Assembly: GCF_020382885.2 (NCBI RefSeq)
Contig: NC_058494.1
Location: 28,561,225 to 28,625,224 of the forward strand
Reading direction: 5' to 3'
Length of the DNA: 64,000 nt
DNA from: Scatophagus argus
Lineage: Eukaryota; Chordata; Actinopteri; Scatophagidae
Below, one piece after another: positions 6,501-59,515 of the stretch (positions within the stretch are counted from its first letter, which is position 1; each line of letters opens with the position of its first letter). The notes under the pieces were generated by a model. The model was given only the letters and a program-made list of their open reading frames with translations. It made no database searches and had not been told where the DNA came from. The position numbers and the translations under genes were made by a program.

Positions 6501-9500
6501 CCATCTATGAAGTACAAATACACACATTGTGCTGCACAGTAAATATGCTTAGCTACTTTCCACCAGTGACCAACAGACATGGCTGTGATGAGAGGAAACT
6601 GACTCACTCTGATCACAGTGTTCAGGATGATCGATACAGACATGACATCACTGAAACCCGATGAAACGCCATCCACTCAGTCGATGAAGACTCGTAATGG
6701 GTCGGTTCTCTGGTCCTCAGGTTGGTCTGTTTGTGTTTCCTGCAGGTTCCTGATGAGGTGAGATCATCACATCAACCAGTACCATCACCGTGTTTTTCCC
6801 ATCATGTACAAACGTACGAGGATCCATGGTAAATCCGTCCTGGGCTTTACTTTCACTTTATACTGCTACTATACCACTTACTTTTCACTTTTGTACTACT
6901 TGTCAGAGTACTGTAGTACTCCATGTGGCCTGGTCTGGTGGTTGTGGATCTTTTCCTTGTGACAGTGATGATGTCATCATCTGGGTCAAAATGGCGCCCA
7001 GTGAGCCGACATGCAGAGAGCAGCGTTGCTTTCAGCTCACCTCCACCTGAATCCTCCGGCTCGTCGCCGTCGTAGCCGACAGTTAAAACGACATTAAAGT
7101 ACTTGTTGGTGTTAACGCAGTATTGATTATAGTATAAGAATACAATAGTGACATAATGAATACTTTCCATACTTTGAGCGCATTTAGCTGATAATACTGT
7201 AAGTCAAATGAAGTATTACTGCAGTCACACTGAAGGATCTGCAGGCTTTAAACTGTGCAGCACCGACCTGCAGTCACAGACTTCTTCTTCTGTGGTGGTC
7301 AGTTTAAAGGTCGCAGTAATGTCCGGCTGGGCCCCGACGTCCTGCTGAGGAGGACGGCGGTGGCCCGCAGTCAGACCTTCATCAACCTGCGGGAGGTGTG
7401 TGAGCGCCTCAAACTGCCGCCCGGAGAATACGCCATCATCCCCTCCACCTTCGAACCGCACCGCCAGGGGAGCTTCATCCTGAGGGTGTTCACAGAGAAG
7501 CAGGCCCACAGCAGGTCCACCACCACACACACACACACACACTGTGACACACACGCACACACACACACACACAGTGACACACACTGTGACACACACACAC
7601 ACACACACACACAGTGACATACATACACACACACACACACACACACTGTGACACACACACACACACACACACAGTGACATACATACACACACACACTGTG
7701 ACACACACCGTGACACACACACACACACACACTGTGACACACACGCACACACACTGTGACACACACGCACACACACACAGTGACACACACTGTGACACAC
7801 ACACACATGCACGCAACCACACACATGCACACTGTGACACACACACACACACACACAGTGACACACACGCACACTGTGACACACACACGCACACACACAC
7901 ATGCACACACACACACACACACACTGTAACAAACACACACACACACTGTGACACACATTCTGTTGTGTGTCCTCTTCAGGCCGATGGTGGAGGACGTCAT
8001 CGCTGACATCCATGAGGTTCGTGTCACCTGATTGATCCACCTTGTTGGAACACGTTGATCAGCTCATGTTTTTTTGATTGAACAGCATTAAACAAACATT
8101 AAACAAACATTAAACAAACGCTAAGCAGATGTTTTCCTTCCAGCCTGACGTCGGACCGAACGACGTGGATCCTCACTTCAAGCATCTCTTCGGGCTGATC
8201 TCTGGAAACGTAACGTTCACTGACCCTGGAAACGTCACGTCTGTAACCTGCTGGGAGAGAAAACAAACGTTTAAATGTTTGGTTTCATTGTGTCCCAACA
8301 GGACTCTGAAGTCTCTGCCTGCGAGCTGCAGCAGGTTTTGGACAAAGTGGTGGCTCAGAGTAAGAACATGAAGGTCGCACAATCTGTCAGATGTTTTCAT
8401 GCTCATGTGGTTTGTATGTAAGACTTTGGACCAGCTGAACAAACTTTGTGTACTTGTAGAGGTTTGTGCACTTCACTGATGTGTGTTCAGCCAGCAGCTC
8501 CACTTACATGAACGCCGTGACATCAGAGTGACGTATGAACTGACCTGAGTGCTGTTTCTCTGAAGGGTCTGATATGAAAACGGACGGCTTCAGTCTGCAC
8601 ACCTGCCGCAACATCATCAGTCTGTTGGACGTATCCTTCACCTGCCCATCATCCGTCCATCATCCGTCCATCATCCCTCTGGTGGTGCAGTGGTTAGCAC
8701 TGTTGCCTCATAGCAAGAGGGTTCCAGGTTCGAATCCCGGTCTGGGCCCTTCTATGTGGAGTTTGCATGTTCTCCCTGTGTCTGCGTGGGTTTTCTCCGG
8801 GTTCTCCGGCTTCCTCCCACAATACCAAAAACATGCACATCAGGTTAACTGGCTGCTCTACTGCCCCCTAGGTGTGAGTGTGAGAGTGTGTGTGGTTGTC
8901 TGTCTTTGTGTGTTGGCCCTGCGATTGACTGGCGACCAGTCCAGGGTGAACCCCGCCTCTCGCCCGTAGTCAGCTGGGATAGGCTCCAGCTCCCCCGCGA
9001 CCCTGATGGATAAGCGGTATAGAAAATGGATGGATGGAAGAAATTATTTAGCTAATCAGAGTGGGACTGTTAACACAAACAGACAGACTGGTCAGTGAGT
9101 GAACTGTCCCCTTAACTGGTCTTCAGATGGACCGCAGTGGTAAACTGGGTCTGCTGGAGTTTCACCATCTGTGGTTGAAGATCCAGAAATACCTGGTGAG
9201 AATGTTGTACTTTTACTGCACTACACCTCAGAGGTGAATATTTTTACTGCATCAGTTTGTGTCCAGATGTAAACCCTGAGTGTCCAGATGTTTTTGTGCT
9301 GAGTAACTGTGATAAACTGAAGGATGAAGATGAAAATCCTCCTCCTCCTTCAGCTAAAAGGCCTCTGGGATGAGTTGAAAACAGCCTGTCTGTGTGAGCT
9401 CAGGAACCTGTTTGGAGGTCCTGGTTCTCCCCGGACAGCCGGACTCCAAACACATGAGGAGATGAAAGCAGGCAGGAGGACAGAAGGAGCTCAGATGTTT

Positions 9501-11135
9501 GACCCTCTGGCACATCAGATTGTTTGGGTTTATTTCCTGCTTTATGTTGTGCAGTCGGTCGGTGTGTTGCTCTTTCAGCTGTCAGGTTGTCTGTGTTTGG
9601 GTTCCTCCTGACGTTCTGGTGTGTTCTTTTGTTCTAACGCTGGCCTCAGCCTGTTCCCCCAGTTTGTCTTGTGTCTACAGTGGGCATCTGGGTCCTCTTT
9701 AGAACAAAACAAGATATATAATCAAATATTTTACTGCACAGACGCCACTTTTACTTCATACTACAGGCCAGATTTAAGGCCAGACACTGTTATAAACAGA
9801 AACATCCTGACAGCCTTTCAGTGTGTGAACTGGAGGGTCATCAGGCCTGTGATTGGTTCAGTGGCTTGGGATCAGAAGGAAATGGTCAAACGTAAGACTG
9901 AATCAGACTGCTGCATGTGTGTAAACTGCTGACCAATATATTGTGCTGTTTGTATACAACATCATCATCAAGACTGGCAAGACTTAAACTAACAATCTGT
10001 CTTCGTCTTCATCTTCTCCCATTTCTCCTCCTCCTCCTCCTTTATCGTACTGTAGGAGATCTTCAAGAGACACGACACGGATGATTCTGGTACGATGAGC
10101 AGTCATGAGATGAGAGCAGCACTGGCTGAAGCAGGTATGTTCTAGTTGTGGTACTGTGGTGGTTCTAGAGATCAGCATGTGGAGATGGAGATGAAGGTCC
10201 AGAGCTCCTGACTGAGCTGATTGATTGTGTTTGTTATGGATGGTCCAGGGGTTCTGCAGGGGGTTCTGCAGGTTCTTCAAACAGCTCAAACTGATTTTAG
10301 AGATGACCTCTAAAGTGACATCTCACTGCTACTCAGAGCACGGGTTCACGAGTTCACGGGTTCTAAAAGAGATTTTGTGGTTCCTTAAAGAAAATCCAGG
10401 GTTTCATAAAAGTGTTGGTGTTGGTGCTTAAAACAGGTTCTACAGATGGTACCCTGAGGTTCTCCCAGGACTACAGGACTGTGTGTGTTTTCAGGTTTCC
10501 AGGTGAACAGCACCGTGATTCAGGAGATCATCAGTTGTTATGCTGACAGGAGTTTTGCCGTCAACTTCGACTGTTTCATCGGCTCTCTGATCCGTCTAGA
10601 GATGCTCTTCAGTGAGTGAACTACAAACTTTAAACTTTAATGACAACAGCATCGTGGACAGACAAACTGAAAACAAACTGAGATACGTTCAGAGCAGCAT
10701 TGGGACACAACCACTCAGGCTGATTGTCAGGCTGTTCTTAAAGAAACTCATCACTCCATCTCTGTTTACTGACTGGTTCCCATTGTTCCAAGTACAGAGA
10801 TTACGCTGATCTTAAATAAACTTTTTAATAATTTAAACAACATTTTCCTTTTCGTTCACAGAGATGTTCAGAATTCTGGACAAGAACAACCAGGGAAAGA
10901 TCCAACTGGACCTGCAGCAGGTACAACCCCAGTTCTGTTCTGGTCTGACTGGTGCTGAACCAGTAACTCTGGGCAGCTCTGACCAGTACAGGCTGGTGCC
11001 CCCTACAGGCTGCAGTGTGATCTGTAATTTTTATGTCAGCATTTCTCTTCTTGTCTTTTATTGGTCCAACCTGTTGTCACATGACACTGAGTTCTTCTAC
11101 TCTTCCTGCAGTGGCTCTGCCTTGCCATCAACTGA
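547..11135 (+). CDS. capn8: Classical calpain, CAPN8-like, 5' end outside window
   Basis: Calcium-dependent cytosolic cysteine protease. Eighteen exons are visible: 547-680, 2325-2493, 3718-3801, 4928-5013, 5221-5295, 5604-5764, 6342-6511, 6746-6757, 7303-7514, 7980-8016, 8144-8209, 8302-8359, 8566-8630, 9127-9195, 10056-10134, 10495-10611, 10862-10920 and 11112-11135 (stop). All borders are GT/AG and phases agree, giving 558 residues. Exon lengths (134, 169, 84, 86, 75, 161, 170, 12...) follow the classical calpain pattern. Visible parts are the rest of the protease core with catalytic His (KGHAYS, exon at 3718) and Asn (RNPWG, exon at 4928), the C2-like domain, and a penta-EF-hand domain ([26 protein letters not shown]). 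The Cys box and exons 1-3 lie upstream. The segments LLDM...[11 protein letters not shown] and the ending WLCLAIN resemble CAPN8 more than CAPN2 from memory, so the paralogue name is tentative. The next gene is its tandem paralogue. Confidence 0.9.
2755..3000 (-). mobile_element. LINE-3'-end-like repeat in antisense, intron 5 of CAPN8-like
   Basis: The segment begins with (aagat)n/(aaggt)n followed by cctttattagtcccatgac and tgggaaa. Read on the minus strand this is the common fish LINE 3' end, in which a ttcccca-like block precedes a (gataa)n tail. A plus-strand relative lies at 54487-54545. Family assignment is from memory and the right boundary is uncertain. Confidence 0.45.
4301..4683 (+). 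mobile_element. V-SINE-like tRNA-derived SINE, full length, 14-bp target duplication
   Basis: The tRNA-like head (gttagcactg...ggttcgaatccc box B) is followed by the conserved V-SINE core (gtggagtttgcatgttctcc, cgtgggttttctccgggt, ggcttcctcccaca) and a 3' tail ending in (atgg)n. It is flanked by perfect 14-bp direct repeats gatagtctgatagc at 4287-4300 and 4684-4697, a target-site duplication from retroposition. It lies in intron 6 of the CAPN8-like gene, same orientation. A near-identical copy lies at 8681-9038. V-SINE membership is by memory of the DANA/mermaid-type core. Confidence 0.85.
5930..6009. repeat. 12-bp minisatellite (attagcatcagc)n
   Basis: Tandem units of attagcatcagc, degrading to (atcagc)n at the right end, in intron 9 of the CAPN8-like gene. 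The period is a multiple of three, so it is open in several frames on both strands. It is not coding. Confidence 0.85.
7515..7979. repeat. CA-rich minisatellite filling calpain intron 12
   Basis: From about 7526 to 7955 the intron consists of (ca)n blocks punctuated by gtgacacac motifs, leaving only a few bases to the donor at 7515 and about 25 to the acceptor at 7979. Long open frames in it (up to about 270 codons on the minus strand, Cys/Val rich) come from the repeat and are not proteins. Confidence 0.9.
8681..9038 (+). mobile_element. V-SINE-like SINE, second copy
   Basis: Same head (gttagcactgttgcctcata, ggttcgaatcccggtctggg), same central core and same (atgg)n tail as the copy at 4301-4683, with only scattered substitutions and small indels. 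It lies in intron 16 of the CAPN8-like gene in gene orientation, next to a short (atcatccgtcc)n stretch at 8648-8676. I could not define a target duplication. Confidence 0.8.
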
Positions 11136-11254
11136 CAACGGCGTCACACTCCAGATGCATGCTGGGAGTTTAAAGGACAGACAGCTGTGGTTGTGGTTTG
11201 AATAAAAACTGTGTATTGTGTTTTGTGTGTGACAGGAAGTCATTTTCACCTTAA

Positions 11255-11260
11255 AATAAA
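11255..11260 (+). terminator. Poly(A) signal of CAPN8-like gene
   Basis: AATAAA lies 120 bp after the stop codon at 11133-11135. A second AATAAA at 11211-11216 could also be used. The 3' UTR is therefore short. Confidence 0.6.
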
Positions 11261-12791
11261 GCCTGGGCAGGCTTAGCATCTCCATACTTTGAGTAAACAG
11301 TAAACATGTTTAACTGAGTAACCATATAAACAGATTTCACTTTGGTATTTTAGACCTTCCACACCACAACAGTCACTACATATTTCATCCAAAGTGACTG
11401 CACACCTCAAGCTGACGTCTGTTTACAGTCTAACAGAAACTGATCAGTATTTATGTTGTAATAAGTAGTAAAAGGCTGAAAATCAAACCGCAGTAACTGG
11501 AAAACATTTATTCGGAAGGAATTGTTGTCTCATGAATGTCATCTGTTGGCAGTTTCATCACATTTTGAGAAACGAATCAGACTGAAAAGGTGAAGATATT
11601 TCAACATGGTGACTGTGGTTCCTGCTCTGTGTCTGCAGGGGGCAGTGTTTTATCACAGACTGTGTAGACTGTAGATGACAGGAACTGCAGTAGTACACAG
11701 TACAAAAACACATATATATATTAATTTACTGTATTATCTTAACATCTCCAATTATTGCATTATTAGTTATCACTTAAATGACTGTAATGATCATGTTTTA
11801 TTATCTGATTCAAATCTCTAAACTAAGCTGTACTTTAAGAATATTTTAATTCAATTTCAATTCAATTCAGTTTATTTATATAGCACCAATTCACAACAAA
11901 AGTTATCTCATGACACTTTCCAATTAGAGCAAACTCTTTAATTAAACTTACTCTACACTTTCTATAAACTATACTCACATTATGGGCAGAGAAAAAAACT
12001 GATGCCATTCATAAAGTTCTGTTTAGCAAGTGGTTTTAATCCGAACTTGGCACCAATCGCAGTATAAGAGCAATGAACTATGTCTGATTGTGCAGTTCAA
12101 CAGCCACACTTTAACGTTTCCCACTTTGCACATGCAACTGTGAACACAGTGAGGTCCTGGCTAGCAATGGCATCCCTGCACTCAGCACGCAGTATTGGTC
12201 ACCTACTGTACTGAAGTACAAATGGTATGTTCTTTCTCTCCTTCACTATGTTTATCAGATTTATTTACAAATTAAGATTTTTACAATTTTTACACACAAA
12301 CTTTATATATTTAGCAGTTTATAAAATCTAATGTGAAGGTTTGCTGCTTAACATTCACCATCTTGTGATAAACAAACTGATGATAAACAGAATATTAGAA
12401 AGTGGAATATTGACATCATGTTAATAACACACATCATAATATTATGTGAGTAATTCTGCACAGATGTTAGACAGGCAGATGGAGACACCAACACACATTA
12501 AAAGATCAAAACTTTATGTCCACAGGAAGTCCCTACCTGCTTCATATCCACAGCTTTCACAGAAGAAGACCGGAAGTTATCCACTGCCTGTTTTTCTCCT
12601 TTGAAAAACAAGAGCTGTTGTTACAGCCTGACAAAAGGTTTACTTTGAAGGCACTTAGCGGAAGTCTTACCTGTCTCTCTTTAATCCCTGAGGAGGGAAC
12701 ACTCACTTCCTGGCATCACTCACCTGCCGCTTCGACATTCTCCAAAACTTCCCAAACTTTCCAGGACACTCGAGGCTCCAAACCCAACAGC
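11261..12791. other. Spacer between the two calpains: promoter and 5' UTR region
   Basis: About 1.5 kb, mostly AT-rich, with no exon recognised. It holds a fragment of an interspersed fish repeat at about 11851-11985. The last roughly 250 bp before 12792 are more GC-rich and must contain the promoter or 5' UTR of the second calpain. No clear TATA box was seen. Confidence 0.5.
11851..11985 (+). repeat. Interspersed fish repeat (ttcaattcagtttatttatata type)
   Basis: The sequence caattcagtttatttatata, then gcaccaattcacaacaaaag, then catgacactttccaattaga recurs at about 20405 and 52893 and in weaker form at 20829 and 43905. All copies are in plus orientation. The family name is not known to me. 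Confidence 0.7.
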
Positions 12792-25937
<13,146 letters not shown>

Positions 25938-26718: not shown

Positions 26719-34525
<7,807 letters not shown>

Positions 34526-36564
34526 GTTGGCCGCAGACTCTGTTCAAAAAACGACAGAACCGGACCGAGTCCGAACCATGGTGACCCTCTCTGTGCACAG
34601 GTTGTCACAATGCGCATGCGCACACGACTCTACTTCTTTGAATGGAGAATGTGACGTTGACGCCGTCAGTAAACGGATTATTACCGCCACCTGCTGGTGG
34701 GACGACACAGTCCTCCCGTCTGTCCCATGTTCTGTGGTGAAATTAATTCAGTTTGGTTTTACTCTGTCAGACGACTACCTGCACAAACAGAAAGACAGCA
34801 GCCTGATGCTGTGAATTGATCATCATAGTTTTGAACTTTACATTGTTGTTATGACCGTGGAACCCTGGACCAACTCTACATCCTCTTGAGGGCTGGATGG
34901 CCTGTTGCTACGGCTCATCCAGTCTCACAGCTTGGTTCACACTGCCAGATAAAAGTCAAGCTTGTTCCCATTTCTAGGCAGTGGAGGGTGTCAGGTTCGA
35001 TGGCCTTAGGATTCCATCTCTGCTTTTTGCGGATGATGTGGTCCTATTGATGTCATCAAGCAGTGACCTCCAGTTTGCAGCTGAGTGTGAAGCAGCTGGG
35101 ATGAAGATCAGCACCTCTGAATCCGAGGCCATGGTTCTCAGCAGGAAAAGGGTGGATTGCCCACTCCGTTGGTGGAGAGATGCTGCTCCAAGTGGAGGAG
35201 TTTAAGCACCTTGGGGTTTTGTTCAGTGAGGGTAAAATGGAGCAGGAGACTGACACCTTGATCAGAGCAGCTTCTGCTGTGATGATGCTGTACTAGTCTG
35301 TAGTGATGAAGAGAGAGTTGAGCCGGAAGGCGAAGCTCTTGATTTACCCGTCAATCTACGTTCCAACCCTCACCTACAGTCACAAGCTGCGGGTCGTGAC
35401 AGAAAGGACAAGATCGCAGATACAAACAGCCAAAATGAGTTTTCTCCACAGGATGTCCAGGCTCAACCTTAAAGGCAGGATGAGGAGCTCAGACATCTGG
35501 GAGAGGCTCAGAGTAGAGCCGCTGCTCCACCAGTTGAGGTGGTCCTGGACGTCTGTCTGGGGAGGTGTTTCAGGCATGTCCATCCGGGAGTAGACCCCGG
35601 GGCCCCGGACCCAGGACATGATGGAGGACCTATCTAGCGCCTGGTCCCTGGAGGAACGTTGTCTCATTTCACTGTTCACTGTACTATTGTTGAACAGCTA
35701 AAATGTCAATGTAAAAACTACTTGACTGGACTTGACTGGACTTGCCACCATCAGGAAGACTGTCCACCACAGAGATTTGTCTGAAATCCCAAAGACAACG
35801 GCAAAGGCAAACCTAATAAAACTGATTAAATTGTTAATATTCTGTTGCTGTTTTTTTTATCTTGTTAAAGGTGTGTTATATTTTATTTATCTGAATGTGT
35901 GTATGTTGTGTGTACAGTTGCTCAGTTACACATGTGGTATTTGAAGCTTATCTTCTTATGTTAATTTTTACTGCACTACATTTATGTGACAACTGCAGTC
36001 TCTGTGATTTTACAAACAAAACTTAGGATGAACTGACATAATACATTATTTTACACAAGTCTTATAAAAGTAGCACCATTCAGCTTCAGCGGTAAACGTT
36101 AATGCGTCACTTGTGACACGAAGTCTGCAATGCAGAAGCACTTAATCTTCCTTCACGAATTAGTTTTACTTTTTTATTTGCTGACTGGTAGAAGGTTTTA
36201 CTCTTGTATTTAAAGGCGCGCTTTTCACCACAACATCGTTTTAATTTGTTTTATATATTTATTTTAGATAGATTTGTTCTTTACTTAGCGTGTTTTCTCT
36301 TGGTTGTTGAAACGTTAAATTTGATTAAAAATCGTGACCAGCAGATTTTATGACTCTGCGCAGTTTTTAAAAAAGAAACATCTTTTTATTGTATTTATCT
36401 ACTCTTTCCTCCGCTTGTCGTGAAACCCTCGGCGCCCCGGCGCGCTGATTAGACCTGATTAAGACCACCTGTCGGAGTCACGTCAGCGGCACGTGGTGTC
36501 GGTCGAGCGGGATCGTGTTAGCAGAGTACACCGAGAGACTTGCCGTTAGTTTACCGGCGGAGGG
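34526..36564. other. Divergent spacer between AARS2 and the ALG13-like gene
   Basis: About 2 kb separating two outward-facing start codons. The AARS2 side (34526-34700) and the ALG13-like side (about 36420-36564) are richer in CpG and are the likely promoters. Between them lies a dead LINE fragment and AT-rich DNA. I looked for the glycosyltransferase-28 part of ALG13 (HAGAGS-type motif) on the plus strand here and saw none. Confidence 0.6.
34970..35670 (+). mobile_element. Non-LTR retrotransposon reverse-transcriptase remnant
   Basis: Frames joined across stops and frameshifts read LRIPSLLFADDVVLLM (the RT F-A-D-D box), AECEAAGMKISTSESEAMVL, FKHLGVLF, VMKRELSRKAKLLIYPSIYV, PTLTYSHKLRVVTERTRSQI and LRVEPLLHQLRW. 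This is the C-terminal RT part of a common fish LINE of RTE-like or related type. Several breaks show it is dead. It is plus strand, upstream of the ALG13-like gene. Confidence 0.8.
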
Positions 36565-39500
36565 ATGCAGAAAGGCCTGAAGAAGTACTTCGTCAACATG
36601 GACGAGTACCTGAGCAGTCTGGGTCTGTACAGGAAGATGGTGGCCCGGGACGCGTCTAGCCTGTTCCGAGCCGTGTCAGAACAGGTAAGCCGGGCTAACG
36701 GTGAACCCACTGTTGTTGCGGGGGAACCGCTGGGACAGGACCAGACCGAGACAGTCAATGGTGGAGTCTAACTGCACGTTGATAAAGTCATTAGCAATTA
36801 ACCCAGTCCAGGTTTGTCCCATTAAGCAGATTCAGTGAGTCTGAGTCCAGGTAGCTGGGAAACTGGCTCCAGAGACGGACTCCTTGTTGGACTGAAGATC
36901 GGGTTTGATGATTACTCGTTTATTCAAGAGATTAAGGAATCAGTAACTGGTCCATCGGATTACAGAAAGTCATGTGATCTGATTCCTTTTCAGTTACTTC
37001 AGACATTGAAAATGGTTCACTTTAAACTGGAAAAATGGATGCAGTCACACAAACTTTCACCAAAATTCATTTGTTTGTTAAACGTAAAAATGTTCACACG
37101 TCGGTGCTTCATTCACACAGTGCGAATCAATTAAAGAAACACGTTAGCACTTTGGTTTTTCTGCACTGACAAACTTACTGTTTACAGTCTGGTCAGGTTT
37201 CTCCTTGAGCCAATTACCTGGTCATCACCTGTGTGTGTGTGTAGTTGTATTATTCTCAGAACCACCACCTGAAGATCCGTCAGGACTGCGCCAACTTCAT
37301 GAGAGCCAACAGGTGCAACTTTGAGCCGGTGAGTCACCACATGAATCGACTCGGCTAACAGCCAGTGAAGCGAGCCGGTCGGCAGCAACAAACGTCTTTT
37401 CTCTCTCAGTTTGTCGAAGGTTCGTTTGAGAAATATCTGGAGCGTCTGGAGGACCCTAAGGTGAGCTGCTGTGACCTTTGACCCTTCAGTCCACTAACAG
37501 CTGAACAGGTGTCTCTGAGTGTAACTGTGTTTGCAGGAGACGGTGGGTCAGGTGGAGATCAAGGCTCTGTCTCAGCTCTACAGGTGAGAAACTGTCACGA
37601 TCACCTGCTCCAGACTGCAGAAATTGAACTGAAATGTTTGCTCGTGTCTGAGATTCCAGAGAAATAATTTTGGCCTGGTCGTTCTTTTATTGAACAAAAG
37701 TTGAACTGAGAGATTGACTTTTGAAACTGACATGAGATCAGCTGATTGTTTGGTCAGAAATGTTTCAGTCCACTCCTGATCCCCCAGAGCTCTTACAGGC
37801 TGGAGCATCTCTCTCTCACTGAAGATCTTTGAGTCATGCTGGTGTCCTCATGCTGCGTTCCATTTGTATTCGTAACTTGTAACTCTGGACTCGGACCGAC
37901 ATCGCAGCCATTAAAAACGAGTTGGACGAGTCCTGTTTGCCACAATGCAAAACAGCTCATTTGTAACGTCATTCAGCCATTGTTGCTATAGCAACATCAA
38001 CAGGTTACAAGCATCACCAGCTGATACACAACACATGACGCAGCATTTCACGCCTAACGACCACAACGGTGTGTCCACAGACAGCGGTGACACAGTGTTG
38101 GGTATACGACTTACTAAACTGGATATAAAAAGACAAAACCACTAAAAACATGCAAAACCACAGCTTGTATTTACAGTCGATGTTCTGAGCAGCCATCTTG
38201 GTTTGCAAACTTGGCGTCCTCTCTGTTGGAATTGAACTTTGGGTGGCGTTCAGTTTGTCACTTCCGGCTTCGGAAGTCGGAAAACAACTCGGAAAATGAC
38301 TTACAAGTGCAAAAGGAACGCACCATCAGTAAGAAGCAACCTGAAAGTGGGTGGAGACATGAGCTGCTGTCCCCACCTCCACATGTCCTCCACATGGGGG
38401 ACAGTGGCTGATTGGGACATGAAACATGTTGAGACTTTAAATCCTGGAATCCTCCTGGAAACCACATACCACGTGTTTCCGTGCAAATATTAATGAGCTT
38501 CAGAGCTGCCGTTTGGACTGAGCCAAGCTAACTGTTTCTGTTCAGTCTCTGTGCTAAGCTAACGGACACAAGAGTGGAATCAGTCGTGTGGCTCAGTAGG
38601 ACGAGGTTTGAATAACTGCGCGTGTGTGTGTGTGTGTGTGTGTGCGCACGAGCAGGCGTTGTTTCCTGATCTACCGTTACCCGGGGAAACCAGCCACGGT
38701 GATCTCGGAGGACGATTTCGTTGACAAGGTGAAGTTGAAGTTTCCTGTTGAGTTGATGAACTGCAGAAATCAACAGAAATGAGACTAAAACGAACAGAAA
38801 ATAAACTGATCACCGTTTTTGGCTTGTAATTTTAACACAAAAGAATCAAACCAGCAGAGTTTATTGACTTGAAAAATGATGTGATGACATCATTTTCACT
38901 GACTGTGACATCACTCAATGACAACATCAGAGGCCATTCATGTCACATGACACCAAACTGATGTGATTGGTCAGCACTAACTGTCTCTGTGTTGCCTAGG
39001 TTACGCTGTGTTGCTCCATCAACGGCCACTATGACATCGTTTACCCAAAGAGTTATCCCGCCTCCGCAGCCGTCTGTCAGTGTGAGTGCTGGCCACTGAT
39101 TGGTCGATCACAGTGACTGACAACAGCTCAACATTTCACTGTCAGACCGACACGTTTATCAATATTAAAATTAACTGCACCTGGATGAGTCGGGAAAAGT
39201 TTTAGCCCTCATGGTGGGGACGTTTTCAAACCAGTTTTAAGGTTCAGGTGAGGATCGGGTTTCAGGTCTTGGTCTGGTCTTAATTTATTATGGTTCTCTG
39301 TGTGTGTAGCTATCCTGTACGAGCTGCTCTACGCTCAGGTGTTTGGTGTGGAGGAGGCGGAGCTCTCTCAGGCCACGGAGGCCTTCAAGGCCGGAGGTCG
39401 TCGCTATAGAAACAGCCTGTCGATGTGCAGTGACATCGACATCGGCTGCGACACACCTGAGGACCGCAGCCACAGGTAGACATGCACACCAGCAGAATAT

Positions 39501-42500
39501 TGTGTGTGATTGATCATGTGAACCGTCCTGACAAACCGGAGCAGGTCTGGGGTCAGATTGGCGGTTTCATGTCCACTGAGAAGTCGATGTGACCTGAATG
39601 CTGGTTGTAGCCTTTTAGACTGAAGACAGAAGCCAGATGTGAAACAGGTTTTACTTCCTGCGGGATGTGTGTGTGTGTGGTTTTATCCTGCAGGGAAGAG
39701 TTGGAGTCGGGTGGAGCTGCTGAGGAGAAACCCCGTGCTGCAGCAGACGACTCAAAGGTGAGCAGCCTCATGCTGTCCCCTCAGGTGAAGGTCAGGAGTA
39801 GATCAGGGACCACACTGAGTTGTTTTCTTCACATTGGAAACATGAAGACCTGAGTGAGCCAGTGATGATGTGTCTGCTGTTTTCATTGGTCAGCCTCCTG
39901 CAGAAGCCCCAACCCCGTCCAGACTGTCTCTTCCTTATAAAGTATTGAAGTCTCTGGACACAGAAGTTTATAGAAACCTGGAGTTTGATGTGTGGCAGGA
40001 CACCTGCAAAGGTGAGACACATCTGCCTGAAGTCCAGCGTTGATGAGAAAAGACAAATGAGTGTTGATTTGAACTGGTTTTGTTATGAGTTATTAATAAT
40101 GTGACCACACTGTGAAAGTCACCGGTTCAGTTTGATCTCCACTTAACAGAGTCAGTCTTTAGGTAACAGGACAGTCACTCACCTGAGCAGCAGGTGAACA
40201 CACCTGAGGTGAAGGCCGGTGGTTTTGCGTTACTCACGCTCTGATCTGCCAGTGTTCCCACCTGAGCCTGATCCTGTCGCTGCTGTGTGTGGCTCACAGA
40301 GATGCAGAAGACGGAGTACATGGTGTTCGCAGGGCGACAGTACTTCCTGGGAGACAAGTGTCAGGTGAGACAACACTGGCCAGCTGCTGCTCGCTGCGCT
40401 CAGCCTGGTGTGCGCAGTATGCACTTTATGTACAGTACACACTTTACGTACATGCAGTACACACTTTATGTACAGTAAAACCTAATGACACAAAACAGAC
40501 ATTAAGACACTGCAGGTTGTCTCAGAGTTTACAAAACGTCTCCAATATTCTGAGACCAAACCAGACTGGTTGACTCACATGATGCGTTTAGGGGTGTGGC
40601 TGCGTGGTCTCTACCCATAATGCTTCCTCAGGTGGTCATTTACAGGTCAGGTCCTGCTCCCGGTCGAGCAGGTGATGTCCCGGGTCTGAATGCTGATGCT
40701 GATGTTGGTGTGTTCACACACTCAGCAGAGAGCAAAGCGTCACCGTGTCGGACTGTGTGCCGACTGCTGGAAACACCTGTGACATGTCATTGAAGGGACA
40801 GCTCACCTGTGCTGGTGTCTGTCCATTGAGATCTTTATGCCATGATTTGAACTGTAGACGTGTGTCTTTGTGTACCAGGACATTCCTGGTCTCCAGTATG
40901 GTACATTTCCGACTCGCTCTTCTCTGGGTTTTGGGGGGAAAAAACCCCCCAAGCCTGTTTCAGACTTGAATGTCAGCATTTTTACCTCGGTCTGTGTCCT
41001 TCAGGTGCGTCTGGAGCCCAAAGGAAAGTACTACAACGCCTTCATCCAGGAAGTTGGAACGCACCCCTCAGCCGTCACCGTCTTCATCGAGGAGCTGGGA
41101 GAGAAGTAAACCTGACACTAACTTGACCCTGAAACAAAGTGTGAACCTGCAAAAAGCCCTCTGACCAGTGAGGACTGGTCTTCAGTTGGACTTGTCTTCA
41201 CAGAGAGGCTTGGCAGCTTCCTCAGGAGCACATTTTCAGTTTGTAAAAATGTGTTGTCATTTTAAACCAAGCAGGATCAGACTTGTTTCAGGAGGGCTGA
41301 CCTGACAACAGTTTATCTAAATGTTTACTCCTGTGTGTGTGTGTGTGTTTGTGTCAGACACCTGGTCCCTCTGACTGATCTCAAACCGGTGAATCCAGTT
41401 CCTGCCTGGAACGTGGCTGTCCCAGCTAGAAAAGGAGACCTTGGTACGTTTTCTCTCAAATCCCAAATCTGTTTTGGTTCTTTCTCGTCCTGCTCTGTTA
41501 TCTATTTTCTTCATCTGCTGGAAATACTGAAATACAGTGAACTCATTAAGTTCACGTTTGAATTTGGTTTGTCTCTTCTGAGCGTGACGGCTGATGTCCA
41601 TATAGCATCGTCCCAACTGTCTCCCTGTCTCTGTGTCCCTGTCAGACTTGGACTCGCGTGGTCAGCGTCATCACCGCCATCGTTACTTCAGGAAGTCTCG
41701 GGGCAGCAGTGGAGTGAAGGGTGCTGAGCTGCTCATTACACCACCCTCCTCCTACGGGGGCCCCGCCACCTCCGGCCTGCCCCCGCGCTTCCAACCAGCA
41801 GGTCACCCACGCCCGCCCCCTCCCCTGTCACCTGGAGCCATAACCTACGACCCCTACGCCCCCCCACACCACCACCCCACAGCCAGACCTCCTCGCTATG
41901 GGGCATCCAGGTGGGAAGTTACACCTGAAAAAACAGCCGCTTACTCGAAACCATTTGAACAGATTCTGTCAGTACTTCAAACCTAAAACTGCCAAGTCTC
42001 CTGTGTGACCAAACAGGAAGGAAGAGTTTGATTAGTTGACTGATCCATAACTTGAATTAATCAGGAACTGTGTGTCTGTTTGTATACCTGTCTCATGGAT
42101 TCTGGTCAGAAGCTCCACCCGTTTCCTGAACCGTCACCTGATTGGTCCACAGTTGACCTGTTACCACCCTGGCAGACGATACTGTCACGACTACGAGAAC
42201 TACGCCTTCAGGTCCCGGTAAACGACAACAAACATAGCTGCTTGTTTTTCCAGCTTCTGTGCTCTGAAGGTTCAGGCTTCGTGTCTCCGATCAACCCCAA
42301 GATTTAAATCTGGTGCCAAACGTCCACATACCGAAGTCGTTAGCACAGCTGCTTCATGTGGAATCGGTGGGACTTTGGTGGAGACACAAGTAAAGCCATC
42401 ACAATAACTTGACAGAAGTTAAATTGTGTACCTTTTACACACAGGACCTTTGATTGGCGGTCTGTGGATTTTCTCATTTATCCTGGTCACAGCTGTATCG

Positions 42501-45500
42501 AGGAGACTGAATCAGATGCAGCTGGACTTGGTTATATGTCTTTGAAGACATTTTGTCTCTCAGCAGTTCATGCTCATCAAGACTAGACCAGGCTAGCCTG
42601 ACCAGCTGGTGGGAGAGGGCGGGTATTTAGCCTCTGTGGAGTCGTTGTCCAGGTTCGATACTTGGTTCTTTGGTGCTGCAGGGTCTAGTCTAGATGAGCA
42701 TAAACTGATATTTCTCCAATCTAAAAACTACTTGTATTCGATTCAGTGTCCTTGAGATACCTAATTAGCAGGAAAGTGCCTCGTTTGTCGTTTGTCCAGT
42801 CGGAGTCGGCGTCAGCTGGCAGCTCTGAATAAAGAGTGTCAGTTTGGTTTCTCTGCGGAGGTGGTGGAGGAGCCCACTGATCTGGAGCCAGCCATCGCCT
42901 ACTATCAGCTGGACGACGGCACCGACACCATCTTCCCCCCACTGCTGGTAAGGTGTTCTGACCTCTCATTGGTCTCCATCAGGTTCTGGCAGGTGTTCAT
43001 GTCTCATGTGACGACTCCTCCCTCAGGATCAAGCTGTGCCACCACCTTCCACTGTGGGGGCTCCACCCCCTTCCTCCTCTGGCTCCTCCTCCAGGGTTCA
43101 GAGAGGCTCAGGGCCCCTGCCACCTGCACCTCCTCCTGGAAACACACCTGTTTGTTCATCAGAGGAGGACCAGGAGGACACGAGCACCGTGGAGGACCAG
43201 GGTGAGGTTGACATTTCATTCAAGTAAAGCCAACAGAACAGTCTGTTCAGCTAGAACACCTCAGAGAGCATCAGTTCTCAGGTGGTCCTGACTTTCATTT
43301 TTCCAGTGGTTCTGTAAACATGTGACTGATGTGTGTTTTGGCAGCTGAGTACACAGAGGAGTACCTGTACATGGCTCCAGGTGAGTAACAGGAGACAAAC
43401 GGCTGAGAGTTCTGCACCTGGACACAAGAAATGACTCAAGTGTGAACTGTTGCAGATCAGGCCTACCCGACCTCAGGTGTTTACACCGCTGCTGAGCCCC
43501 CCACCAACCAGGTAACTTGACCTCTGACCTCACAGCAACTATTTAACAGAGATTTAAACACATCACGTCACGATCACATCACGTACGATTTGCAAGTTTG
43601 CTGAAGCATAGAGGAAATCATAATAACAAACCAGACGGCAGTAAATGAGCTCATCCCCTCCTCTGAGAATCCTTTGTTGTTAGTACAAGCAATGGGAAGA
43701 AGCGGTTGGCTGTCATTTGTAGAAGCTGCAGTGGTTCACAGGGATGAAGGTCAGGCTCCTCTCTGGGCCTCCAGAGAACAGCAGAGGAGAGACTGAACAG
43801 ATGCCTTAGACCACAGGACTGTAAAATGTAGAAAGTATTGTAGAATTATCAAAGACAGAGTTATTGAAGGAGGTATATCAGGAGGTATTAAATCAATGTG
43901 TGTATGTAGCACCAAATCACAACAAAGGTTATCATGACAGCAGCAGCTCGAGACTGAGCTCTTGAATGTAGACACTATGGACAAAGAGCAGTGCACTGTC
44001 CTCTTATGTCACTATTGAAACCCACTCTTGCTGGTTCACCACAGAGAAAACAGACAAAAAGCCTCACTTTTATGTTTTCTTATTGTGAAAGGACGAGCAG
44101 GAAGGAGGAACTGCTGACTCTCCCCCAAGACCGGAGATGAACTACAGCTACACGCAGCAGGTAAAGAGCAGAATGAACATCATGTAAGTGCAGTTCTTTC
44201 ACACACAGTCGTGGATCAGCGGTTAGGGTGTCGGACCCGTAACCGGTGGATCGCTGGTTCGATTCCCCGTCCCGGTGTCCATGGCTGAGGTACCCTTGAG
44301 CAAGGTACCTAACCCCCACTACTCCCCGGGCGCTGCACGCGGTCGCCCACTGCCCCGGGTTTGCTGTGTGTGTGTGTGCACGTCACTTGGGTGGGTTAAA
44401 TGCAGAGAACAAATTTCGTTGGAGTGAGTTCCCTCCAATGACAAAATATGTCACTTTAATCTTTAATCTTAATCTGATTGGTTACTGCTGCAGCTGTGAC
44501 ACAAAGCTCCACCCACCTCCAACCTTACAAACATCCCATCTGGCTCACTGAGGTCAGAAGCCAGGAACTGGTCGTCTTCGTCGATCCGTTCTCTGCCGAT
44601 GGATGGATGATGATGATGTAGTTTCTATGGTTACCACGGTGATACAGCTGTGCAACTGGTCGCCTCATGTAACACGTGACACGTAACATAAAAGGCACGA
44701 GAGCCCGAGCTGCTGATTGGCCGCCGATGTTCACTGATGTTACTGTGTGGGTTTCAGGTGGTGAAGCCAATAGCAGTCATCTGCTCTTCACCCTCCTCTT
44801 CCTCCTCCACTCCCTCTTCACCATCATCACGTGTACCTGCAGCTGCTCACCTGCCGCCAGCCACACACACACAGACACGCTCAGGTATACACACACAGAC
44901 ACACACACACGGACACATGCGGTGACTGTATCTTGAATGTATTGTGATGGTTTGTGTTCTTAGTTGCCATGGCGATCCCGGCTCCTTCTTCCTGGTTGGT
45001 TAATGACTTGGGTGAGGCGCTCTGCACAGTGGTAGCTCCTCCCCCTTACTCCTATGACCCAAACGGCAGTGACTTACCCCGAGGTCAGAGGTCAAACACG
45101 GTAAACGCAGTGTGACGTCAGGTTGAGTCTGTCACAAACTGCAGTCTGAACCTGATGTCAAACTGCTGCTGCAGCTTCCTGTGATGTACGTTTTACTCAT
45201 GTTGGTGTGTGTGTGTGTGTGTGCGTGTGCGTGCGTGTGCGTGCAGACTGCAGAGTCCTCCAGTATTATTTCAACTTAGGAGTCCAGGTGAGAGACTTCT
45301 CGCTGCAAACTGATCACCCGTGGCTGACACTCGGTGTTGGTTCGGTTGGGTGGTTGGTTTCCATCTCTGGGACTGATTCACTTCTCAGCACGTTTCCAGA
45401 CACTCACACCTGTTGTTCTCTGTAAAACCTGATGCAGACCTGCAGTATGTGGACTCATGTTAACTGGTCAGCTTCGGGGGGGGGGGTGAAGAGTACAGTA

Positions 45501-47403
45501 GACGAGATGATTGTGTCGGTTAATCCTGACGAATCGTTCAGACTGTAAAATGCCCAATAGTCATGAACCTGATCAGCTGCAGGTGAAGAAAGCTGTTCAG
45601 TTTGTGTTGAGGTGTGAATGAGCCGTGTCCTCTGACCTTCCCACAGTGGTACCATCAGACCTGTTGGCAGCAGCAGCAGGCGTACCCCGCCACCTTACCA
45701 GAGGCCCCCTATGCCTACCAGCACTTCACCCCCTACCTGAGCCAGGAACCCCCTCTGCACGGTAAGACCTACACACTTTCTGATTGGCTGCTGGGACAAA
45801 GAGCTGCCACTTCATTGGCTGCTTGGGTAGATGGAAGCGGTCAGCATTTTCATGAGTGGCAAATGGAGACTGATGTAGCCATTCAGACTGTTCCCTAGTG
45901 CCGTGCAGTGAAGTTCAGGTGCTGAAGCTCAGGGTCGGTCAGTTCTGTACGGGACTGGACTCCGCGGCAGCCCCCTGAGGTGGAGTACAGCAGCAGTGAG
46001 TCCTGTTGAAGCCCAGTTTTCACAGTGGGGGGCCCGAGCTCTGGCATGAGTATCCTGATGTATTCCTCATGGTGCTCCAGAGTCTGAGGCTTAGTCGGGT
46101 CCATGAAGACCAAAAGCTGCTTTGTTCACTGAATTTCCTGTAAATCCTCTGACTGTGAGAGCACATTCTCAGATGTTCCTGAAGCTTTGTTTTTTGAATG
46201 TGGTCAGTATGAGCTCAGCCATGAACTCGGAGAGGAGGTTTCCTTTTCCCCAGACTCTGGTCCACTTTCCGTAAGATCACTGCTGGGATCCTATCGGGTG
46301 ATCTGGGAATATCCTGACTCGTATGTTGGACATACACCATTCTGTGATAATCCAGAGTAACTACACTTCTGCTTGTTTTTCCTCTGAAACAGGTGGTAGG
46401 ATTTCACATAGATGTTTGACTATAAATATGAAACAGTGTGAAACGTGGTGACATGTTGAAATGCAGCATGGGACTAAGTTCTGTCCTCGTCTTGAACATG
46501 TTTAAGTCTGGAAGCAAAACACACTCGTAGTGTGAAGTTTACTGTCAGAAATGCTCATGCAAAAGACTTCTTCTCTGATTAAATAAACTTGTCCAGCTTG
46601 TTCAGCTTTCATAATTCATTTCCTGTCATGTCATGTGACTGTCACATCCAATATAATGTTAGTGGCTGCTTGCTAACGTTAGCTGCCCCTCTTGATAAGT
46701 GAGCTAGTTGATTTGATCAAACCCGCACACCTAACGGGAAGTAGAACCTCTCTGATCTGGTCCTGGTCTTCTATTTCCAGCTGCGCCACCAACATATCCT
46801 GAGACAGCTCGAGGCCCCCATCAGTCCCCCTCGTCCTACCCAGAGTCCAGCAGGGCAGGAGACGGACAGACAAACGGACACAGTAGCGGTTAGTACTGAA
46901 GAAGTTTTAACTCCTACCTGTCAGATATGAGCTTTTGTTACTTCTATAAAAACATCTGGACGCACCTGGACATGGCGATGGAAAATCACTCAGGTTGGTT
47001 TGTTTCATATCCTTCCTCATCAGGCCCCGCCATGGAAGGCTCATCCTCCATCAGCCCCACCCCCACAGGCTCCACCTCTGCATCTGTTCTCCTGTATCAG
47101 GATCAGACAGCCCCTCCCTCACTCCTGCACCTGCAATATGAAGCTCCACCCCCAGCCGCCTACCTGCCCTCCGCCCCTCCACCTCCTCTTCCTCACCCTG
47201 CTCATCCTCACCCCACCCACCTCCCACATCACTCCTCCTACCATCCCTGCCTCCCCCCCTCAACCCACTGGGGGGCACTGCCAGGCGGAGGCCACACCCC
47301 CCGAGTCTACTGCCCCGCCCCCAATCCTGGTCATGTGATCAGTTACATCACCGCCCCGCCCCCCCACCACACAGCCACACACTACATCCCCCCAACCATC
47401 TAA
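36565..47403 (+). CDS. alg13: ALG13-like OTU-Tudor protein lacking the glycosyltransferase domain
   Basis: 25 exons, all phases closing, 912 aa: 36565-36684, 37245-37328, 37410-37460, 37537-37583, 38656-38728, 39000-39081, 39310-39475, 39694-39757, 39894-40011, 40300-40364, 41005-41105, 41358-41443, 41646-41910, 42176-42217, 42800-42947, 43027-43201, 43345-43380, 43456-43511, 44092-44160, 44758-44884, 44964-45083, 45247-45287, 45647-45761, 46781-46888, 47024-47403. An OTU domain (about residues 12-155; His in NGHYD) is followed by [20 protein letters not shown], a Tudor domain (about 283-345, [20 protein letters not shown]), Arg- and Pro-rich regions, the [26 protein letters not shown] motif shared with ALG13 and OTUD4, and a Pro/His-rich tail. 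The start [16 protein letters not shown] and [18 protein letters not shown] favour ALG13 over OTUD4. A TAG at 36547-36549 in frame blocks upstream extension. The expected catalytic Cys is Ser32. Activity is unproven. Confidence 0.9.
37849..38325. mobile_element. MITE-like element in intron 4 of the ALG13-like gene
   Basis: The left end atgctgcgttccatttgtat...aacttgtaa and the right end ttacaagtgcaaaaggaacgcaccat form imperfect terminal inverted repeats. The interior has no coding capacity. No clear target duplication was found, so the superfamily is left open. Confidence 0.6.
44208..44473 (+). mobile_element. tRNA-derived SINE, intron 19 of the ALG13-like gene
   Basis: A tRNA-like head has box A-like cgtggatcagcggttagggt and box B ggttcgattcc. 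It is followed by tacccttgagcaaggtacct, ctccccgggcgctgcacgc, a (tg)n stretch, cacttgggtgggttaaatgc and a tail (ctttaat)n. It is not an intact tRNA gene: no acceptor stem closes after box B. A truncated antisense relative lies at 19195-19320. Confidence 0.8.
44862..44925. repeat. CA microsatellite spanning an exon-intron border
   Basis: The (ca)n tract interrupted by gacac begins inside exon 20 of the ALG13-like gene (encoding ATHTQTRS) and continues past the donor site at 44885. Length change would alter both protein and splice-site spacing. Confidence 0.75.
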
Positions 47404-47448
47404 CACACACAGACTTCTTCCTGCTCAAATATAAAACAACTGCTTCAA

Positions 47449-47454
47449 AATAAA
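47449..47454 (+). terminator. Poly(A) signal of the ALG13-like gene
   Basis: AATAAA lies 46 bp after the stop codon at 47401-47403. A second AATAAA at 47754-47759 would give a longer 3' UTR. Confidence 0.6.
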
Positions 47455-48384
47455 ATACAAAAAAGGCTGAAATGTGAGTGAAGTACCTCAAAGGAATAAC
47501 TTATTGTTTGAAATGTTTGTTAGCTGTTAATTGTTTGACCTGCCTGCTGTTACCATGGCAACGCAGGTGACAATGTCCTCATTTGCCACAATGACCAGGC
47601 ATTTGACTAATGTTGTCAGATTTCTGTTTAAGTTTATCTTCAGTTTATCTTTCAGAGATAAGCCAGCCAATCAGAAAGAGGGGGCGTGGCCAGTCCCTGT
47701 TTAGAAGGGATGTATTTGTGTTTAACTAGTGGTCAGTTTTTTGTTACTGGGTGAATAAAGTTTGTTGTACCAGCAGATGATTGTGTCTTCAGTTTTGTTC
47801 TGTTTTTTTTTTTTTTTTTCTTTTTTTTGTTTGTAGCTGCTGCTTGGTCGGGTGGAGTCATGAGAACTTGTGGCTGACGGAGTGAAACATGAGTTATGTG
47901 GAGGCAGATAATGTGGTGCATGACTTAACTGTCACAGTGAACCAGCAGGGACGAGTTAAAGCTTTTAGTTTCATCACGTTAACTGTGATTTCATTCATCT
48001 CTGATATTTACTTTTCAATGTGTGACTGCAAACTCGATCTCAACTAAGTCCAGAAACCTGCATCAGATCACTGGACCCTTTCACACCAAAACCAAACTGG
48101 CAACCAACTGAATCCTGCCTGACCTGTGCTCCAGTGAAGAGGTCTCATACCAGACCAAGACATTCTGGCACAATGAGGATGTTCGTTTTCCTCCAGTCAC
48201 TCAAAGCACCACAGAAGACAACCTGACAACGAACCCGTCCACAAACGCATCACCTGCGAGTACAGAGATGCAGCTCACGCAGGTGATGACACGTCGTAGG
48301 TTTGTATGAAATCAGAACTTCCTAGATGCAAACAGGACAAAAGAGCAGAACAAAATGCAACCAAATGGAACCAGAACGCACAAC
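47455..48384. other. Convergent spacer between ALG13-like and EOLA1-like genes
   Basis: No gene seen. It holds the alternative poly(A) signal at 47754 and a poly-T stretch at about 47798-47828. The rest is plain AT-rich sequence. Confidence 0.55.
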
Positions 48385-48558: not shown

Positions 48559-50476
<1,918 letters not shown>

Positions 50477-58097: not shown

Positions 58098-59515
58098 ACA
58101 GCCGCCTTGTCCTGACGCACCTCAAATCCATCACTGACCCACTCCTGGAACCCCTGTAGTTCGCCTACAGAGCCAACAGGTCTGTGGACGACGCTGTCAA
58201 CATAGCCCTACACTACATCCTTCGGCTTCTGGACTACACAGGAACCTACGCTAGGATCCTGTTCGTGGACTTCAGCTCTGCCTTTAACACAATCATCCTA
58301 CAGGACAAACTCTCCCAGCTGAGCGTACCTGACTCCACCTGCGGGTGGATCACTGACTTCCTGTCTGACAGGAGGCAGCACGTAAGGATGGTGAAGCACG
58401 TCTCTGACTCCCGGACCATCAGTACTGGATCACCGCAGGGCTGTGTTCTTTCTGTATACAAACACCTGCACCTCCAGCCATCAGAATGTCAAGCTCCTGA
58501 AGTTTGCGGATGACACCACCCTCATTGGACTCATCTCTGATGGGGATGAGTCAGCCTACAGATGGGAGATCGACCGTCTGGTGACTTGGTGCAGGCTCAA
58601 CAACCTGGAGCTCAATGCCTTCAAAACAGTGGAGCTGACAGTGGACTTCAGGACGAACCCACCCCCACCTGCCCACATCACCCTGTGTGGCTCCCCCGTG
58701 GTTACTGTGGAGCATTTCCGCTTCCTGGGAACCACCATCACACAGGACCTCAAATGGGAGCTGAACATCAGCTCCCTCATCAAAAAAGCACAGCAGAGGA
58801 TGTTTCTGCTTGAGGCAGTTGAAGCAGTTCAAACTGCTAAAGGCAATGATGGTGGACTTCTACACCTCCATCACAGAGTCCATCCTCACCTGCTCCATCA
58901 CCATCTGGTATGCTGCCGCCACTGCTAAGGACCTTAGCAGACTGCAGCGTATCATCTGCTCTGCTGAGAAGGTAATTGGTTGCAACCTACCTTCTCTTCA
59001 GGATCTGTACACCTCCAGGATCCTGAGGAGAGCATAAAAGATTGCAGCCGACCCTTCTCACCTGGGACACAAACTCTTTGAGGTGCTCCCCTCTGGCAGG
59101 AGGCTGCGGTCCTCTCGGACCAAAACCTCTCGCCACAAAAACAGCTTCTTTCCCTCTGCTGTCAGGCTCATGAACACACGAGAAGTCAACCACTGACACC
59201 CCTCAGCCCCTCACACCAACACAAACACACACACACACACAGAGTCACACACTCTCCCCTTGTACATTCAGGTCCCTGGCACGTCATCACTCTGCACTTT
59301 AAAAAATATGCATGGCCATCTGCAAATGTTTACGTCCACCATTGTATATACAGATGTATGTATATGTATACTGTGTATACGGACTTTTGGCATTTCACTA
59401 TTTATCCTTTTTGTTCTCTTTTCTTGTGTTTGTCTGCTGCACCTGATGCCAAAACAAATTCCTCGTAGGTGGAACCTACCTGGCAATAAAAGTTTTTCTG
59501 ATTCTGATTCTAGTT
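58098..59515 (+). mobile_element. L2-like LINE, 5'-truncated, frameshifted
   Basis: Three overlapping frames give reverse-transcriptase segments: FVDFSSAFNTI, STGSPQGCVLS, KFADDTTLIGLI (the F-A-D-D box), FLGTTITQDLKW, then ITIWYAAATAKDLSRLQRII and SAEKVIGCNLPSLQDLY. The copy ends with a typical short repeat tail gattctgattctag. Frameshifts near 58450 and 58810 break the ORF. It lies about 55 bp upstream of the exon carrying the wasf3 start codon, antisense to wasf3. Confidence 0.85.

What the first reader, a model, noticed from the sequence alone, without database searches (positions are those of the whole stretch)
36547..36684. ALG13-like gene starts directly at the OTU domain: glycosyltransferase half is absent
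The first exon begins [16 protein letters not shown] and is preceded by an in-frame TAG at 36547-36549, with no plausible 3' splice site between the stop and the ATG. In long vertebrate ALG13 the N-terminal GT28 domain (partner of ALG14 in making dolichol-linked chitobiose) precedes this segment. No GT28 sequence was seen in the 2 kb upstream. So this locus encodes a free-standing OTU-Tudor protein, either a split ALG13 or a paralogue that lost the GT part.
Basis: partly seen in the sequence, partly recalled or inferred. Interest (0 to 1): 0.7.

Follow-up and report, generated by a model that had tools for sequence, protein, structure and literature searches.

The report
Stand-alone fish ALG13-type OTU-Tudor gene
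A fish-like gene resembles only the back half of the human disease gene ALG13 and seems to start at its own promoter without the sugar-transferase half; this is probably the old unfused arrangement rather than a loss, so it is useful but not strange.

Summary
The first coding exon is 36565-36684, with an in-frame TAG at 36547-36549. A 25-exon model (36565-47403, 912 aa, 24 of 24 introns GT-AG, no internal stop) gives an OTU domain, a Tudor-like segment and a Pro/Ser-rich tail. It aligns nearly end to end with the OTU-onward part of human ALG13 (recalled sequence, 525 bits), better than with OTUD4 (310 bits). No GT28 signal was found on either strand of the 64 kb. Exon 1 lies in the highest-CpG tile of the 134 GC-rich tiles. 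One correction: the TAG is itself a weak candidate acceptor AG, which sequence alone cannot exclude.

'Split or lost the GT part' is the less economical reading. Published fly relatives are already free-standing OTU-Tudor proteins, and a review lists two separate fly genes for ALG13. The long human form is probably the derived fusion. The OTU nucleophile here is Ser, not Cys, as published for fly Otu/CG3251 and one Fugu protein. The decisive check, a separate GT28 gene in this genome, could not be run: the genome search did not complete (11 tries). Verdict: new member of a known kind.

The parts
36400..36720 (+). CpG-rich region around the putative transcription start and exon 1 (36420-36720: GC 0.59, CpG o/e 1.06; whole window 0.46)
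   Evidence: the 300-bp tile at 36401 has the highest CpG o/e (1.10) of 134 tiles with GC of at least 0.55 (1274 tiles in all); the next two (34451, 34401) lie at the divergent alanyl-tRNA synthetase start. AT-rich sequence just upstream has an even higher ratio (36200-36399: GC 0.285, o/e 1.72)
36547..36549 (+). in-frame TAG upstream of the start codon; its AG is also a weak candidate acceptor
36565..36684 (+). coding exon 1, aa 1-40, [16 protein letters not shown]...SEQ, donor GTAAG; starts directly at the OTU region
36658..36660 (+). codon AGC = Ser32 at the OTU nucleophile position (DASSLF); mammalian ALG13 and OTUD4 have Cys (Louis 2015; recalled alignment)
37245..39475 (+). exons 2-7 (37245-37328, 37410-37460, 37537-37583, 38656-38728, 39000-39081, 39310-39475), rest of the OTU region, His135 in NGHYD
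   Evidence: model; Pfam PF02338 OTU aa 33-115, E 2.4e-9, 38.2 bits against a cut-off of 23.3
39694..41443 (+). exons 8-12 (39694-39757, 39894-40011, 40300-40364, 41005-41105, 41358-41443), linker and Tudor-like segment (about aa 283-336)
   Evidence: phmmer to the SPF30 Tudor (4a4f) E 0.0032; no Pfam Tudor family at E up to 1
41646..47403 (+). exons 13-25, Pro/Ser-rich tail with ALG13-type motifs ([34 protein letters not shown]), stop codon at 47401-47403
34550..36564 (.). spacer to the divergent alanyl-tRNA synthetase gene; no GT28 found; reverse-transcriptase-like remnant about 34980-35600 (by eye)
32731..34543 (-). pieces of an alanyl-tRNA synthetase gene (called AARS2-like from its N-terminal end, from memory), head to head with the finding

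Best explanation
This is the ALG13-class member of the OTUD4/ALG13 family in a ray-finned fish (fish is inferred), encoded as a free-standing OTU-Tudor-Pro-rich protein of about 912 aa with its own promoter. It most likely never had the GT28 half. The ancestral OTU-Tudor gene and the ancestral ALG13 glycosyltransferase gene are separate, as in flies, and the long mammalian form joins the first about 125 GT residues to a pre-existing OTU-Tudor unit by splicing. A separate short GT28 ALG13 must do the glycosylation step with ALG14 (inferred, not seen). The protein probably acts as an RNA-protein or ubiquitin adaptor: the OTU fold binds ubiquitin or partners, the Tudor segment reads methyl-arginine, and the low-complexity tail drives assemblies. 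With Ser at the nucleophile it has little or no ordinary cysteine-protease activity. Shown here: gene model, start, upstream stop, CpG-rich start region, no GT28 found in 64 kb, Ser codon. Inferred: history, function, the separate GT gene.
For: Gene model with 24 of 24 GT-AG introns and no internal stop. Exon 1 in the top CpG tile of 134 GC-rich tiles. No GT28 by tblastn against shuffles, nor by Pfam on the three + frames of the spacer. Start Met aligns with the first Met of the human OTU part (recalled human sequence; tblastn residue 1 to 36565; blastp 1-909 to 1-907). Closer to ALG13 than to OTUD4, 525 against 310 bits (recalled sequences). Fly relatives carry OTU and Tudor without a long N-terminal part, and two fly genes are listed for ALG13. 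The two human isoforms share only the N-terminal 125 aa (passage) and the short one suffices with ALG14 (passage). Human ALG13's OTU, with Cys, was inactive on diubiquitin and unreactive to Ub-PA (passage). A 2025 paper gives Otu and ALG13 a methyl-arginine-type (T1) Tudor (passage, PMC12147562).
Against: No transcript evidence. A weak acceptor at the TAG cannot be excluded. The own genome could not be searched. One gene cannot tell 'never fused' from 'fused then separated'. Activity reports conflict: fly Otu, also with Ser, showed deubiquitinase activity (PMC12263153, passages) against Louis 2015; [quoted passage not shown] So Ser may not mean inactive. The human comparisons rest on recalled sequences. 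The Tudor call is weak (E 0.0032; no Pfam hit).
Confidence: 0.68

Rival explanations
1. Secondary split or loss: an ancestral vertebrate fusion gene lost or separated its GT28 half in this lineage, or a duplicate (such as a teleost-duplication copy) kept only the OTU-Tudor half while the full ALG13 lies elsewhere.
For: Neighbours are calpain and alanyl-tRNA synthetase genes, which from memory resemble human 6p21.1 rather than the Xq23 home of ALG13, so the copy may be relocated or a paralogue.
Against: The outgroup state (flies) appears already separate, so loss needs two events. The synteny comparison is recalled only.
Confidence: 0.22
2. A long-range upstream GT28 exon outside the window splices to 36550 (using the TAG as acceptor) and the gene is a normal bifunctional ALG13.
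For: The TAG's AG leaves an open frame FTGGG-MQKG and scores above 3 of 24 acceptors.
Against: 24% of the 4552 + strand AGs score as high. The site sits in the CpG-rich start region. A divergent alanyl-tRNA synthetase gene lies between, and no GT28 was found in the 36.5 kb upstream.
Confidence: 0.07
3. It is the OTUD4 orthologue, not ALG13-class; then no GT half would be expected at all.
For: OTUD4 has a similar OTU-Tudor layout (recalled alignment); Louis 2015 describes the Ser-bearing Fugu protein as an OTUD4 homologue.
Against: 310 against 525 bits, and ALG13-type tail motifs (recalled human sequences).
Confidence: 0.05

Closest known systems
Human ALG13 long isoform (Q9NP73), OTU-Tudor-Pro-rich part
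   Same: OTU start, Tudor-like segment, tail motifs, near end-to-end alignment (recalled sequence)
   Different: No GT28 half found here; nucleophile Ser instead of Cys
OTUD4 (human)
   Same: OTU then Tudor, no GT28 half (recalled sequence)
   Different: Lower similarity (310 against 525 bits); tail differs
Drosophila Otu and CG3251
   Same: OTU-Tudor proteins with Ser at the nucleophile (passages)
   Different: 495 aa for CG3251 and 853 aa for Otu; sequences not compared here
Fugu OTUD4-family protein with active-site Ser (Louis 2015)
   Same: Fish, Cys-to-Ser (section 5)
   Different: Sequence not available here; which paralogue it is was not checked

Membership tests
ALG13 (as N-glycosylation enzyme) | GT28 catalytic domain that pairs with ALG14 | tested here: not met
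   No GT28 found in the gene or in 64 kb nor by Pfam in the protein and the + frames of the spacer
ALG13/OTUD4 OTU-Tudor family | OTU domain | tested here: met
   PF02338 E 2.4e-9, above the gathering cut-off
ALG13/OTUD4 OTU-Tudor family | Tudor domain after the OTU | tested here: inconclusive
   phmmer E 0.0032 to the SPF30 Tudor; no Pfam Tudor hit
ALG13 class within that family | closer to ALG13 than to OTUD4 over full length | tested here: met
   525 against 310 bits with recalled human sequences; no gene tree possible
active OTU cysteine deubiquitinase | Asp-Cys-His triad | tested here: not met
   D29, S32, H135; positions taken from the recalled alignment
active OTU cysteine deubiquitinase | deubiquitinase activity | not testable with these tools
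   needs an enzyme assay; reports on Ser-bearing fly Otu conflict

The most novel reading that the evidence does not exclude
Fish keep ALG13's two halves as unlinked genes, so long mammalian ALG13 is a derived read-through/splice fusion of two unrelated genes. Here the OTU-Tudor half has its own promoter and a Ser nucleophile, a natural separation of function showing that this half works outside N-glycosylation and without ordinary cysteine-protease chemistry.
Probability: 0.45. Interest if true: 0.5.

Novelty: new member of a known kind. Interest (0 to 1): 0.32.

Why it matters
Human ALG13 variants outside the GT28 part are reported with epilepsy, intellectual disability or developmental delay (passages), yet a review calls it unclear whether the OTU domain is active or functional (passage). 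If fish carry that half as its own gene, deleting it alone would show what it does apart from glycosylation.

Tried and rejected
HIN1L as a third ancient paralogue: I considered that the gene might be the fish counterpart of mammalian HIN1L, because Louis 2015 speaks of a triplication. A 2020 table equates HIN1L with OTUD4P1, 'OTUD4 pseudogene 1' (passage), so I dropped it.

A PDB search with the OTU part found 4 distinct sequences, of OTUD3, OTUD5 (two) and OTUD1, at E up to 0.001, none named ALG13 or OTUD4. Rfam on 33000-48000 gave 0 matches at the gathering threshold. Papers on a fish ALG13 split: the listings of searches show no title or abstract start that describes it. This is no proof of absence: one search showed 20 of 292 papers and 20 of 37, subscription papers are mostly not held, and I read passages of only some listed papers.

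Gene-model drafts had errors at E11/E12 and E14, corrected. The acceptor matrix includes the wrong E14 acceptor (1 of 24). No structure prediction was run.

Full report
What is there. The sequence around 36547-36684 is as reported: TAG 36547-36549, then 15 bases, ATG 36565, open to a GTAAG donor from 36685. I extended the exon to a full model of 25 coding exons, 36565-47403, 912 aa. All 24 introns are GT-AG and there is no internal stop. Exon choices in the tail are by eye and frame, so errors are possible there. The only other ATG from 36300 to the start is at 36350, out of frame.

Domains. Pfam sees an OTU domain (E 2.4e-9) and nothing else at E up to 1. A Tudor-like segment at about aa 283-336 matches the SPF30 Tudor structure at E 0.0032. 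The last 561 residues are 18% proline and 11% serine. Against recalled human sequences the protein aligns over residues 1-909 with ALG13 from its OTU Met (36% identity, 525 bits) and over 12-855 with OTUD4 (30%, 310 bits). The first Met aligns with the human Met that opens the OTU part.

Is the GT28 half absent? tblastn with human and yeast Alg13 gave nothing above chance on either strand of 64 kb: best 21.2 and 20.4 bits, against 19.2-25.4 bits in 20 shuffles made by permuting 3-base blocks. The same search with the human OTU part found OTU pieces in exons 1 to 7, down to 16 residues (one linked with its neighbours in one E-value, one at E 0.021), so fairly short exons are within reach; a GT28 gene cut into very short or diverged exons could still be missed. 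Pfam on three of six frames of the spacer found no glycosyltransferase, and the recalled human GT domain was recognised at E 1.5e-29. The spacer is closed by a divergent alanyl-tRNA synthetase gene.

Is exon 1 the first exon? Among 134 tiles of 300 bp with GC of at least 0.55 (of 1274), the one at 36401 has the highest CpG ratio (1.10), followed by the divergent gene's start. The ratio is not unique to it: AT-rich sequence at 36200-36399 reaches 1.72 on few CpGs. This is a promoter-like signature, not proof. Against it, the TAG is also an AG; splicing there would give an open frame, and its score exceeds 3 of 24 acceptors. A non-coding leader exon is also possible: the AG at 36523-36524 scores 7.1 but would keep the TAG in frame.

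History. Louis and colleagues (2015; abstract, passages and section 5 seen) describe fly CG3251 (OTU 29-150, Tudor 296-361, 495 aa) and Otu, and place ALG13 with OTUD4. A 2020 review describes a fly Alg13 gene and, separately, otu, and its table lists otu and CG14512 for human ALG13; that CG14512 is fly Alg13 is recalled, and the review cautions that otu may not be orthologous (passages). In human, the two ALG13 isoforms share 125 N-terminal residues and the short one is sufficient with ALG14. So the free-standing OTU-Tudor gene is the expected ancestral layout, and the long fused isoform is the special case. This inference would fall if early-branching fishes have the fusion.

Active site. 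The codon at 36658-36660 is AGC, Ser32, where human ALG13 and OTUD4 have Cys (recalled alignment); Asp29 and His135 are kept. The same change is published for fly Otu and CG3251 and for one Fugu family member. Human ALG13 with Cys was inactive on diubiquitin but reacted with haloalkyl probes (passages), while another paper speaks of activity in the long form's C-terminal region (passage). Reports on Ser-bearing fly Otu disagree: inactive in Louis 2015, active in a 2025 eLife paper citing Ji 2017 (passages).

What I could not do. The window's own genome did not complete (11 tries), so a separate GT28 gene, which the organism should need, is inferred only. No fish relatives were fetched: the open sequence collections here are prokaryotic, viral, phage, plasmid or E. 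coli, and I did not scan them. That the window is fish is my inference from gene content and layout. Synteny with human 6p21.1 or Xq23 is recalled.

Verdict. Observation confirmed, with the acceptor claim softened. It is an ordinary member of a known family in its probably ancestral layout, with a known kind of active-site change. Interest is modest.

Noticed in passing
36658-36660: Ser (AGC) at the OTU nucleophile position, a Cys-to-Ser change known from fly Otu/CG3251 and one Fugu protein.
   Followed up: yes
6263-15851: Calpain gene pieces on the + strand (Calpain_III at 6263-6661 and 7252-7614, Peptidase_C2 at 15468-15851, best PDB match calpain-1), possibly two tandem genes. Of the 10 window pieces given to Pfam, 6 had a hit.
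   Followed up: partly
32731-34543 (-): Alanyl-tRNA synthetase pieces, AARS2-like from memory, head to head with the finding and with a CpG-rich start.
   Followed up: partly
34980-35600 and 58160-58510: Reverse-transcriptase remnants; Pfam RVT_1 hit for the second, the first by eye.
   Followed up: partly
48963-49427 (-): ORF containing [35 protein letters not shown]1-like from memory; no Pfam hit at E up to 0.001.
   Followed up: no
33770-34000, 44200-44400, 48800-49040: Dispersed repeats that look alike by eye (share a 'cccttgagcaagg' box on one strand or the other), perhaps SINE-like.
   Followed up: no
8676-8749: ARAGORN lists one tRNA-like element without a clear anticodon.
   Followed up: no
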